A DNA stretch of 64,000 nt from Bradyrhizobium sp. WSM471 (lineage in GTDB: Bacteria; Pseudomonadota; Alphaproteobacteria; Rhizobiales; Xanthobacteraceae). The stretch is taken from the NCBI RefSeq assembly GCF_000244915.1, contig NZ_CM001442.1, forward strand, positions 6,510,001 through 6,574,000, read 5' to 3'. The position numbers and the translations under genes are program-made. Below the pieces are notes generated by a model that was not told the DNA's origin, ran no database searches, and worked only from the letters and a program-made list of their open reading frames with translations. This document shows, one piece after another, positions 1-3,151 of the stretch. How positions within the stretch are numbered: the first letter of the stretch is position 1; every line of letters begins with the position of its first letter.

Positions 1-1878
1 TTGAACGGGCCTCCTTGGAGACGACCCTTTCCAACTAGCTAGATTTTGCGAAACCTCCTTCGACTTCTGATCGACAACAGAGCTCACATCGCCGGTATAG
101 TCCAAGAGGAATCGCTTCCAATCTTCAGGCGTTATTCCAGCGCGCTGATGTTGCTCTTGCATCGATCGAAGCGCCGCGGGAGCGCGGTTCTGTCGCAAAT
201 CCCGAACATCTGAATTTACGCCAGCCAACGAGGTTTGCTGGTTAGAGAAGTATCGGATGTTTCCTCTCACGGTTTCAGCCGCAGAGAGCACCTGCTGGAG
301 GCGGTCGGAAGCCTTACTCTGCGTCTTGGGCAGGAGACTGACACGATCTCCTTGATAGCGCGCGATTAGCTTTTCTTTTTCAGCGATATGCGCAGATACG
401 ACGGAAACTTGTTTGGTCTTCTCCATCTCAATGGCTATTTGATCTGAGATCCCAGCCAAAGCAGTGGCTTCGCGAACACGGGTATCGTGATAAGTCGACG
501 CGCGATTGTCGAGTAATTCGTCGAAATCTGCGGCTCCATCGCGCTCAAGCGCTGGATGGGCTTCGAAGATGACTCGCTCTATCTCTCTTATGAGACTTGG
601 CATTCCCTCGATTGAGCAAAGATCTTCAACAAACTGTTGAGACAGATAACGAGCACGTGGATGGGCGTCGGCCGAAAGATCAATTGGAAAGTCCAGCAAA
701 CTGCGTGTCGGCCCTTGCTGCCCTCTCCAGTTTAGAGAGACGGTCGCTCCAGATAGGTATTCGTGGGCTCTAGCCAAAAACGACGGGCGTTCCGATGACG
801 GAACATAAGAGCCGCATCCCGTCGCTATTATGTCTGCGAGCGCAGTCTTGCCCGCGCCGCGGGCACCGATGATGGCTACAAGGCCAGAATTCAACGGTAT
901 TCTTGGGGTTATCGCCCACGGAGCATTCGCGATATGAACCTCATCAATCACCTGAGATTCCATGGCGGGCGACGGAGGCACCTCACCAACGTAAGCGCGC
1001 TCAGGATCAATGCAGGCCTGCAGTAGAGCATCAAACGTCGGCTGGCCCTTTATCCAGCAGAAACGGCTTTCGTCCGGCTTTCCTACGCGGTCGAGCGAAT
1101 GAGCATCAGAGCCCCAAAGGCACGGCTTGGGACCGTTGTAGTCACGTCGAAGCTCATCGAGACTTGCTGCTCCATACCCGAGCCAAAAATCCCGCTGCTT
1201 GAGACTACCGGCAAAGATTGCGTGAGCAGCTTTCTCCATCTCCCGGCGCAAAACATTGTCAGATGCTTCCTTTACGCCGGACGTTCCGTCAGCGTTGCCC
1301 GCTACAGCAATGAGTATATTACTCTGCGCCCATTTCATGTCCCGATAGACTTCCAGAAGGTCTTCTCGGGATACCTTGAACTGTAGACAGCCGTGCTGAA
1401 GTGCGGCCTCTTCATTGCTTTTGCCGGGGTCCGCGCGCGCCCCGAGCCGCCTAAGGTCACTTTCAGTGCAGGCAAATTTGTCGTCGAAAGCGACAAACGA
1501 TAGACGGCTCAAAAATCGATGAAGCTCCGTTAAGTGATGGGGGTCTTCTGGATTGACCAGCAGATGCACGTTGACAAAATTGCCCTTGACGGTCCCGGTA
1601 TTCAGACGAAGTTCGATGTTTGGGAACAGCAGTTCGCATCCCCTAAGACGTCCTTTTTCCTTGAACGCCTTCACGCGTTCGTATGACCTGGGGATGCAGT
1701 AATCCGTCACGCCAATCGCGCTCAGGGGCGGCGAAACAGCCTCAAGGGCATTCAAATAGAGTTCCCAACTGTCCTTCTTAGGATATTGATCCGATAGAAC
1801 TGTCCCGGGCGCGTGAATGTGGGGCTCCCACCGATGCCAGACAGAGCCACGGCTGAGCCGCTGTGAAGTATCCCCCAT
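1..1878 (-). CDS. TrlF-like PHP-domain/ABC-type ATPase (3' end beyond window)
   Basis: The reading frame is open for 626 codons from an ATG at 1878 to the window edge, so the C-terminus is missing. The N-terminal part looks like a PHP phosphoesterase domain: HxH at residues 20-22 and a late SDAH motif at about 257-260. An ABC/SMC-type ATPase domain follows, with Walker A GARGAGKT at 338-345 and a Q-loop-like YLSQQF near 411. A charged, probably coiled-coil stretch occupies about 460-560. This order matches proteins named TrlF family AAA-like ATPase. Walker B and the signature motif would lie off the window. PHP domains usually hydrolyse phosphoesters with bound metals; the substrate here is unknown. 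The base composition is clearly more AT-rich than that of the flagellar genes downstream. The start has no clear ribosome binding site. The gene lies 165 bp after a same-strand gene of unknown function and may be co-transcribed with it. Confidence 0.72.
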   Translation of the reverse strand, partial: MGDTSQRLSRGSVWHRWEPHIHAPGTVLSDQYPKKDSWELYLNALEAVSPPLSAIGVTDYCIPRSYERVKAFKEKGRLRGCELLFPNIELRLNTGTVKGNFVNVHLLVNPEDPHHLTELHRFLSRLSFVAFDDKFACTESDLRRLGARADPGKSNEEAALQHGCLQFKVSREDLLEVYRDMKWAQSNILIAVAGNADGTSGVKEASDNVLRREMEKAAHAIFAGSLKQRDFWLGYGAASLDELRRDYNGPKPCLWGSDAHSLDRVGKPDESRFCWIKGQPTFDALLQACIDPERAYVGEVPPSPAMESQVIDEVHIANAPWAITPRIPLNSGLVAIIGARGAGKTALADIIATGCGSYVPSSERPSFLARAHEYLSGATVSLNWRGQQGPTRSLLDFPIDLSADAHPRARYLSQQFVEDLCSIEGMPSLIREIERVIFEAHPALERDGAADFDELLDNRASTYHDTRVREATALAGISDQIAIEMEKTKQVSVVSAHIAEKEKLIARYQGDRVSLLPKTQSKASDRLQQVLSAAETVRGNIRYFSNQQTSLAGVNSDVRDLRQNRAPAALRSMQEQHQRAGITPEDWKRFLLDYTGDVSSVVDQKSKEVSQNLASWKGSSPRRPVQ

Positions 1879-2043
1879 TTGAAAAACTCTAGCTTATTGG
1901 CGTTATGGCAATATCGCGGTTTTACCTAGAAACGATCCAGTGCGTGGAATGAATAGAGCAAAGTAACCACACCGAGTCTTGTACGCCGATGAAACAATGA
2001 TGAGGTCGCGTATGTATCCACGAGTCCAGACTATCGACCGACA

Positions 2044-2925
2044 TTAATCGGCGCTGTCTTTGCTCCGCCCTCCCTTACGCTTTGCAATCGGCAGCAATCC
2101 TTCTGCAGGACGTACAATTCCCTGAACTTTCGCATCCTTCAAATTCAGAAGGCCGGCTCCCGGTCTGGCGCCCGTTTTTGCAGCCTTCCTCACTGCAACC
2201 ATAACATCTTCGACCCTGAAACCTTCTTTAGTCGGTGCAATAGCTATAGCATCAAACGTAACAAGGGGCTCACCGGATGGGCCGTCTGCAGGAAGCTTCA
2301 CGAAGTCTTCTAGTGTGTCCTCATTCAGAAGGTCGTGCATACCTTCGCCATGTGGAAACAGACGTTTGGGTGGCCTCGCGCGAATAACCTCCAATTTTGC
2401 CAAATCGTCGCTTGAAAATGGCGCGTGGAAATCGTTGTAGAAAATGAGCGGCTGTTTTCTCACTCGCATCTGGAAATGATAATGAGGATGTTTGGCTTCC
2501 TGGCTTGTCGGATGACCCGCAAAGTCGCTATCTGAACAAGAAAATGACCACTCGAAATCTTCATAAACGATGGTGCTAGCCAGCATTTTCCCATCAGCTT
2601 CGATAGGTAGGTCGTTTATGTTGATCGCGAACTCACTTTCATTTGCAACCCAACGCAGAAAATTTTGAAGGTCGAGATAGCCAAAACGCTCAGACAATTT
2701 TTTAAAGAAGCGTTTCTTGAAGCCCGGCGGGTTGAGCAACCAGTGAGGGCAAGGCTGCGTCACATCGAAATGCTTCAAAGGATGATTGCAGAGATAACAA
2801 TCACCGACCTGAAAGGCAGCCTGAAATCGACCATGCTCGGCATCCGCATGCTGAATGACCGCTATTGGCACCTCGGCCAAAAGATTCTTGAGATGATCGC
2901 GCTTTTGGGCCTGGTTACCGCTCAC
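2044..2925 (-). CDS. Unrecognised 293-aa protein with Cys/His motifs
   Basis: I do not recognise the family. The frame begins with GTG at 2925 and ends with TAA. Residues about 43-61 hold CYLCNHP followed by CPHW, a spacing that could bind zinc. A second His-rich stretch, HPHYHFQ, lies near the middle and could also be metal-binding. The C-terminus is Lys/Arg-rich (KRKGGRSK). No signal peptide or membrane segment is visible, so it is probably cytoplasmic. It lies upstream of the PHP-ATPase gene on the same strand, both in AT-rich sequence beside a tRNA, so a joint role with that ATPase is possible but unproven. An overlapping 99-codon frame on the other strand looks like a shadow. Confidence 0.65.
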   Translation of the reverse strand: MSGNQAQKRDHLKNLLAEVPIAVIQHADAEHGRFQAAFQVGDCYLCNHPLKHFDVTQPCPHWLLNPPGFKKRFFKKLSERFGYLDLQNFLRWVANESEFAININDLPIEADGKMLASTIVYEDFEWSFSCSDSDFAGHPTSQEAKHPHYHFQMRVRKQPLIFYNDFHAPFSSDDLAKLEVIRARPPKRLFPHGEGMHDLLNEDTLEDFVKLPADGPSGEPLVTFDAIAIAPTKEGFRVEDVMVAVRKAAKTGARPGAGLLNLKDAKVQGIVRPAEGLLPIAKRKGGRSKDSAD

Positions 2926-3074
2926 GACGAATCCAGCGAATATTTAAGTCCTCGCGGATATTAGCGGTTTGCACGTCTAGTTGCATCAAATGACTGAAAC
3001 ACGCAAAATTAGCGTGCTCAGTTGTTGCGATGCAAACTAGGCGAATGCGACGTCGGGGAGTTGCAGAGAACATT

Positions 3075-3151
3075 TGGTAGCGGGAGAGGGACTCGAACCC
3101 CCGACCCCAGGATTATGATTCCCGTGCTCTAACCAGCTGAGCTACCCCGCC
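3075..3151 (-). tRNA. tRNA-Met (CAT anticodon)
   Basis: Read on the minus strand, 77 bases fold as a tRNA. The acceptor stem GGCGGGG pairs with TCCCGCT (two G-U pairs), the D stem is GCTC/GAGC, the anticodon stem is CGGGA/TCCTG with loop ATCATAA giving anticodon CAT, the T loop is TTCGAGT, and CCA is encoded. CAT could also be tRNA-Ile2 with a modified C, but the body resembles elongator tRNA-Met. Its 3' end touches the AT-rich island-like segment. Confidence 0.93.

What the first reader, a model, noticed from the sequence alone, without database searches (positions are those of the whole stretch)
1..2925. PHP-domain/ABC-type ATPase plus an unknown gene as a possible mobile defence cassette
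Seen: HxH and SDAH motifs of a PHP phosphoesterase, then a Walker A and Q-loop of an SMC-like ATPase in one chain, with a second unknown gene upstream on the same strand, all in AT-rich DNA. Known: PHP domains fused to ABC-type ATPases are found in conflict systems and act on nucleic acids or phosphoesters. Inference: this pair could be a DNA- or RNA-processing defence module. The 3' half of the ATPase is outside the window.
Basis: partly seen in the sequence, partly recalled or inferred. Interest (0 to 1): 0.75.

Follow-up and report, generated by a model that had tools for sequence, protein, structure and literature searches.

The report
TrlF ATPase and unknown-gene tRNA island
A small stretch of foreign-looking DNA next to a tRNA gene of a Bradyrhizobium-like bacterium carries a known kind of ATP-driven, nuclease-like gene and an unnamed gene that elsewhere turns up in prophages and near phage-defence genes, so it looks like mobile cargo with two separate, possibly phage-resistance genes rather than one two-gene system.

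Summary

TrlF and the upstream gene (ORF2, 293 aa) fill a 4.19-kb, 52% GC insert that starts at the 3' end of a tRNA-Met gene and ends 23 bp after the TrlF stop codon. Relatives hold other cargo in that slot, including large serine recombinases, TIR and patatin genes. So it is mobile cargo.

It is not a conserved pair. In the genus 9 of 265 genomes have TrlF and 4 of 265 have ORF2; only this genome has both. 0 of 11 other TrlF loci carry ORF2. 3 of 50 distinct ORF2 loci have a TrlF/PHP-ATPase relative nearby.

ORF2 is the less expected part: an unnamed family without hits in four family libraries, found in 12 distinct proviral contigs, some at P2-like accessory positions, and near restriction, Avs2 or DUF4238 genes. 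No defence activity is shown for either gene.

The parts
1..1878 (-). TrlF-family PHP-SMC/Rad50-like ATPase, residues 1-626 of 989 (the rest lies left of the window)
976..1845 (-). PHP-fold domain, residues 12-301
1813..1821 (-). PHP HxH motif, H20-I-H22; both histidines in 26 of 26 aligned rows
1099..1110 (-). SDAH, PHP motif with D258 and H260; both in 26 of 26 rows
844..867 (-). Walker A, GARGAGKT, residues 338-345
637..639 (-). Q-loop-like glutamine Q414, invariant in A6 (26 rows)
2044..2925 (-). ORF2, 293 aa, unnamed family; GTG start shared with close homologue P0005
2743..2799 (-). ORF2 C43-x2-C46-x12-C59-x-H61, invariant in 96 aligned sequences; zinc binding inferred
2476..2484 (-). 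ORF2 H148-Y-H150 (both histidines invariant in 96); H167 at 2425-2427 also invariant
1..3074 (.). In-window part of the 4189-bp low-GC insert; its left end is 1115 bp left of the window (genome 6508886)
3075..3151 (-). tRNA-Met (CAT), whose 3' end is the right boundary of the insert

Best explanation
The stretch is a decayed or passively mobilised 4.19-kb genomic island in a tRNA-Met integration hot spot. It carries two cargo genes that most likely were acquired and act independently. (1) A TrlF-family protein: an N-terminal PHP-type metal-dependent nuclease fold fused to an SMC/Rad50-like ATPase with coiled coil. Most likely mechanism (inferred): the ATPase head and coil recognise an infection-related state, for example free DNA ends or a phage protein as for PARIS AriA; ATP binding or hydrolysis changes the coil, and the PHP domain then cuts nucleic acid of phage or host. 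(2) ORF2: a single-gene accessory factor with an invariant Cys3His site and an invariant HxH...H set, most likely a metal-binding phage-exclusion or defence protein that acts alone. Shown here: domains, family, insert boundaries, separate distribution, prophage and defence-gene neighbourhoods of some ORF2 relatives. Inferred: nuclease activity, trigger, metal binding, defence role.
For: TrlF: NF045780 641 bits against a cut-off of 350 over residues 10-983; model with PHP and SMC/Rad50 parts; sequence-profile match to PARIS AriA, E 2.2e-6, and Rad50, E 5.3e-6. Island: in G011 the conserved left flank lies 381 bp from the tRNA end, against 4189 bp here; similarity to this genome stops within seven bases beyond the tRNA in all 19 relatives whose fetched stretch holds the tRNA; 4 of 20 fetched relatives have a large serine recombinase at the tRNA end. 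ORF2: 13 IMG/VR loci, 12 distinct, among them integrase-ORF2-regulator-tail in L141 and regulator-ORF2-integrase in L132, a portal gene beside or 1.8 kb from it in L134 and L137, a DUF4238 gene two genes upstream in L140. Cellular loci with HsdR, HsdM, Avs2, type III MTase or Vsr within two genes (L012, L007, L025, L045, L046). A DUF4238 protein from the P2 hot spot protects against T7 (PMC9122126, passages read).
Against: No defence activity is known to me for either protein; TrlF was named in a Photorhabdus temperature-restriction locus, where no trlF mutation was found and its role is unproven (PMC7554251, passages). In PADLOC the N-terminal 625 aa of TrlF match best Ppl at only E 9e-7, and ORF2 matches nothing. 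In all 25 aligned rows of the window's clade two positions that are histidine in the L046 protein are replaced (H to Y60, H to A/S193), so catalysis is uncertain. No integrase, no att repeat of 14 bases or more, no second copy of the tRNA end. Most cellular ORF2 loci show no sign of these prophages: only L031, L034, L044 and L050 of the 51 stretches tested matched any of 13 phage-gene queries. Five of ten ORF2 neighbours hand-picked for one search had no PADLOC hit, and there was no random-locus control. ORF2 was not found in 50,697 phage or 72,556 plasmid records.
Confidence: 0.6

Rival explanations
1. ORF2 and TrlF form one two-gene defence system, ORF2 being sensor or regulator and TrlF the nuclease.
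For: Same strand, 165 bp apart, alone together in one insert. A TrlF or PHP-SMC relative lies near ORF2 in L046, L047 and L048.
Against: Only this genome has both among 265 of the genus and 385 of the class. 0 of 11 other TrlF loci have ORF2 in the fetched stretch. In L046-L048 one or two other genes lie between and the ATPase of L046 is distant (25% identity); ORF2 of L047 and L048 is 883 of 885 bases identical, so they are about one case. 47 of 50 distinct ORF2 loci show no TrlF, though many are cut by contig ends.
Confidence: 0.1
2. TrlF is a growth or stress regulator (temperature restriction), not a defence protein.
For: The family is named after the Photorhabdus temperature-restriction locus; deleting the whole operon allows growth at 36 C (PMC7554251, passages).
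Against: The trl point mutations found there were in trlG, none in trlF, and the locus is patchily distributed among genomes (same passages); a self-toxic defence system switched on by heat would give the same phenotype (inference). A TrlG-like gene was not found beside the window's TrlF or in 11 relatives' loci with the one query used.
Confidence: 0.15
3. Both genes are inert passengers or take part in transfer of the element rather than in defence.
For: No integrase remains. TrlF relatives L100 and L101 lie near a serine recombinase and a transposase-type gene. Three genus matches are partial (L088, L093, L095).
Against: Both frames are intact here, with catalytic-type residues invariant across distant homologues.
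Confidence: 0.15

Closest known systems
TrlF of the Photorhabdus TRL operon / NCBIfam NF045780
   Same: Full-length family match, same PHP-then-ATPase order
   Different: No TrlG-like gene found beside it (TrlR was not searched for); TDH changed to TDY and a second histidine lost in the window's clade
Ppl anti-phage protein (NF042955, PADLOC PDLC02208; reported by Gao et al. 2020, recalled)
   Same: PHP-ATPase single chain (recalled); best stretch 837-983, whole-protein E 1.8e-33
   Different: 115.6 bits against a cut-off of 1000: not a Ppl
PARIS AriA (8v46)
   Same: Best-scoring solved structure by sequence profile, profile positions 765-921, E 2.2e-6
   Different: AriA has no PHP domain (recalled) and works with a separate TOPRIM protein AriB (PMC9122126, passages)
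Mre11-Rad50 and SMC ATPases
   Same: Head and coiled-coil fold
   Different: Here the nuclease-type part is a PHP domain in the same chain
Exclusion or defence genes of the P2-like prophage hot spot (old, tin, DUF4238; PMC9122126, passages)
   Same: Some ORF2 relatives sit at P2-like accessory positions
   Different: ORF2 matches no family in Pfam, PADLOC, NCBIfam or PHROGs and is untested

Membership tests
TrlF family (NF045780) | Whole-protein score above the curated cut-off | tested here: met
   641 bits against 350, profile 1-943 of 944
TrlF family (NF045780) | PHP-fold N-terminus and ABC/SMC-type ATPase in one chain | tested here: met
TRL operon (trlR-trlF-trlG) | TrlG (HATPase_c_4) gene adjacent | tested here: not met
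   No tblastn match (E up to 1e-3) of the L046 TrlG-like protein in L002, L003 or the 11 other TrlF loci; one query only. Not filed as a TRL operon
TRL operon (trlR-trlF-trlG) | TrlR regulator gene | not tested
   No TrlR search was made
Ppl | NF042955 score above the cut-off | tested here: not met
   115.6 bits against 1000
Spaf_1101 family | NF045781 score above the cut-off | tested here: not met
   116.8 bits against 475
PARIS | AriA plus AriB TOPRIM nuclease pair | tested here: inconclusive
   AriA-like profile match only; no AriB search was made
Active PHP nuclease | Complete metal-ligand set and cleavage activity | tested here: inconclusive
   H20, H22, E89, D258, H260 in 26 of 26 rows and H105 in 25 of 26, but Y60 and A/S193 replace the L046 histidines in the 25 other rows; activity needs an assay
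Mobile genomic island at a tRNA | Boundary at the tRNA 3' end, atypical GC, absent or replaced in relatives | tested here: met
Mobile genomic island at a tRNA | Own integrase and att repeats | tested here: not met
   No repeat of 14 bases or more, no second tRNA end; one serine-recombinase query gave no match beyond the tRNA end in the insert. Read as a decayed or passive island
Known defence gene (PADLOC 2.0.0) for ORF2 | Match to a PADLOC model | tested here: not met
   0 families at E up to 1
HIT/GalT-like enzyme for ORF2 (HxHxQ motif resemblance, recalled) | HIT fold | tested here: inconclusive
   No HIT protein among the rows shown by Foldseek and VIA or in the PDB profile search

The most novel reading that the evidence does not exclude
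ORF2 founds a new, widespread single-gene anti-phage (superinfection-exclusion) family with an invariant metal-type site and no detected solved relative. It travels in prophages (among them P2-like ones, at their accessory positions), tRNA islands and defence-gene neighbourhoods, and here meets by chance a TrlF protein of a TDY clade with an altered PHP active site.
Probability: 0.4. Interest if true: 0.6.

Novelty: new member of a known kind. Interest (0 to 1): 0.42.

Why it matters
It turns a vague 'PHP-ATPase cassette' into two testable genes. TrlF is a common, named, functionally unsolved PHP-Rad50-like family related to Ppl and PARIS AriA. ORF2 is an unnamed family of at least 710 protein clusters, found in records labelled from alphaproteobacteria to Patescibacteria and a few archaeal bins, some of them in prophages where exclusion genes are kept. 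If ORF2 excludes phages, a defence gene that four family libraries miss becomes searchable.

Full report
What is there. The window starts inside a gene. The genome is one 7.78-Mb contig. Taking the stretch to the left gives the complete minus-strand gene, 989 aa. A database record for the same protein starts 41 residues later (948 aa), but most of the 120 listed homologues are about 980-1005 aa and cover the N-terminus. The second gene, ORF2, is 293 aa, 165 bp upstream on the same strand.

The insert. A tRNA-Met gene lies at window 3075-3151. The right flank matches in 60 of 60 genus genomes searched, this one included. From 20 of the 59 others, chosen among the best rows, I fetched the DNA beyond the tRNA. 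Similarity to this genome stops within seven bases beyond the tRNA in all 19 relatives whose stretch holds the tRNA; the relatives fall into several groups among themselves. The left flank resumes at genome 6508885, 23 bp beyond the TrlF stop codon, in three of them to the base and in four more within 24 bases. Between the flanks lie 4189 bp here, 381 in G011, 1893 in G036, 3410 in G046, 4083 in G021, 5147 in G055, 5220 in G009 and 9897 in G029; in the other loci the left flank was not found in the fetched stretch or matched only in part. None is a clean empty site. Four of 20 have a large serine recombinase ending at the tRNA (L114, L115, L117, L123; Pfam for three). Other cargo includes a TIR protein, a patatin-TPR protein and HARE-HTH, DUF3800 and weakly HNH-like genes (2 of the 10 proteins in that call had no hit). 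The insert has 0.521 GC against 0.629 and 0.661 on its sides. No integrase and no att repeat were found. A serine recombinase leaves little repeat (recalled), so loss of that gene or capture by other means fits.

Do the genes belong together? TrlF (E up to 1e-100) is in 9 of 265 genomes of the genus and ORF2 (E up to 0.001) in 4 of 265; G000 alone has both. Across 385 genomes of the class the numbers are 4 (E up to 1e-60) and 3 (profile, E up to 1e-20), again only G000 shared. None of 8 genus and 3 class TrlF loci contains ORF2 or a match to one TrlG-like query in the fetched stretch (the class loci are only about 6 kb long). Of 51 ORF2 loci (48 and 3; L084 repeats L013, so 50 distinct) three show a TrlF/PHP-ATPase relative. 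L046 has a TrlG-like HATPase_c_4 gene, TrlF, Vsr, an unknown gene, then ORF2; L047 and L048, nearly identical in ORF2 (883 of 885 bases), have an SMC-like protein with a PHP-like start, a PIN protein, then ORF2. Many ORF2 loci are short contigs, so 3 of 50 is a lower bound. The pair is best seen as a meeting of two cargo genes.

ORF2. It has no hit in Pfam, PADLOC or NCBIfam or PHROGs. A profile search finds 710 proteins; the 120 listed have no Pfam domain and, where named at all, are 'hypothetical protein'. In 96 aligned sequences C43, C46, C59, H61, H148, H150 and H167 are among 12 invariant columns, which suggests a zinc site and a second metal or catalytic site (inference). The model is confident (pLDDT 87.4, pTM 0.82) but gave no convincing structural match. 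Thirteen IMG/VR loci encode relatives, 12 distinct since L137 equals L138. In L141 the order is integrase, ORF2, phage regulator (phrog_603, Ogr by recall), then tail protein phrog_52; in L132 it is regulator, ORF2, integrase; L140 and L136 have tail or baseplate genes and L135 an integrase beside ORF2. L134 has a portal gene beside it and L137 one about 1.8 kb away. L140 also holds a DUF4238 gene (E 7.7e-27) and L134 an AAA plus HNH pair. 'P2-like' is my reading of these genes. Passages of Rousset et al. 2022 (PMC9122126) describe the P2 hot spot between gpA and gpQ and a DUF4238 protein that protects against T7. Against a general prophage setting: 13 phage-gene queries matched only 4 of 51 cellular ORF2 stretches. 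In cellular loci hand-picked neighbours within two genes are HsdM (L007), HsdR (L012), Avs2 (L025), a type III methyltransferase (L045) and Vsr (L046); the other five of the ten proteins in that call had no hit. Of 136 neighbours scanned (of 169), families such as type I-III methyltransferases, Avs2, Drt2 and Ppl were matched (only the first 25 families of each list are shown), without a per-locus count and without a random control. ORF2 was not seen in the isolate-phage or plasmid collections.

How it probably works. TrlF: an ATP-dependent clamp-like sensor with a built-in PHP nuclease, comparable with Mre11-Rad50 in layout and with PARIS AriA in its ATPase; trigger and substrate are unknown. 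ORF2: a stand-alone metal-binding exclusion factor. Both defence roles are inferred. The only phenotype that I found for a TrlF operon is temperature restriction in Photorhabdus, mapped to trlG (PMC7554251, passages).

Verdict. The mobile-cargo reading is right, the pair reading most likely wrong, the defence reading plausible for each gene on its own. The part worth pursuing is ORF2.

Noticed in passing
L113:4893-5789 (-): 298-aa protein in the same tRNA-Met slot of a relative (G046) with a TIR_2 domain fused to a pterin-4a-carbinolamine dehydratase domain; an unusual combination to my knowledge.
   Followed up: no
L112:9835-11892 (+): Low-GC (0.52) patatin-TPR gene in the same slot of G029.
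   Followed up: no
L114, L115, L117, L123, tRNA-Met end: Large serine recombinase genes whose match runs into the tRNA-Met gene, suggesting this tRNA is their attachment site.
   Followed up: partly
L047:4297-9225 and L048:5819-10747: SMC-like protein with a PHP-like start, PIN_12 protein and ORF2 in a row in Bacteroidales bins, with genes that look by eye like DNA methyltransferases nearby.
   Followed up: partly
L101 and L103: Two genomes of the genus share a similar partial TrlF copy (628 and 495 aa ORFs); L101 has a transposase-type (rve) gene nearby.
   Followed up: no
L105:7962-15346: ORF2 of another genus member lies beside a GTPase-associated GAP1-N1 gene and further genes that by eye may form a conflict system.
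   Followed up: no
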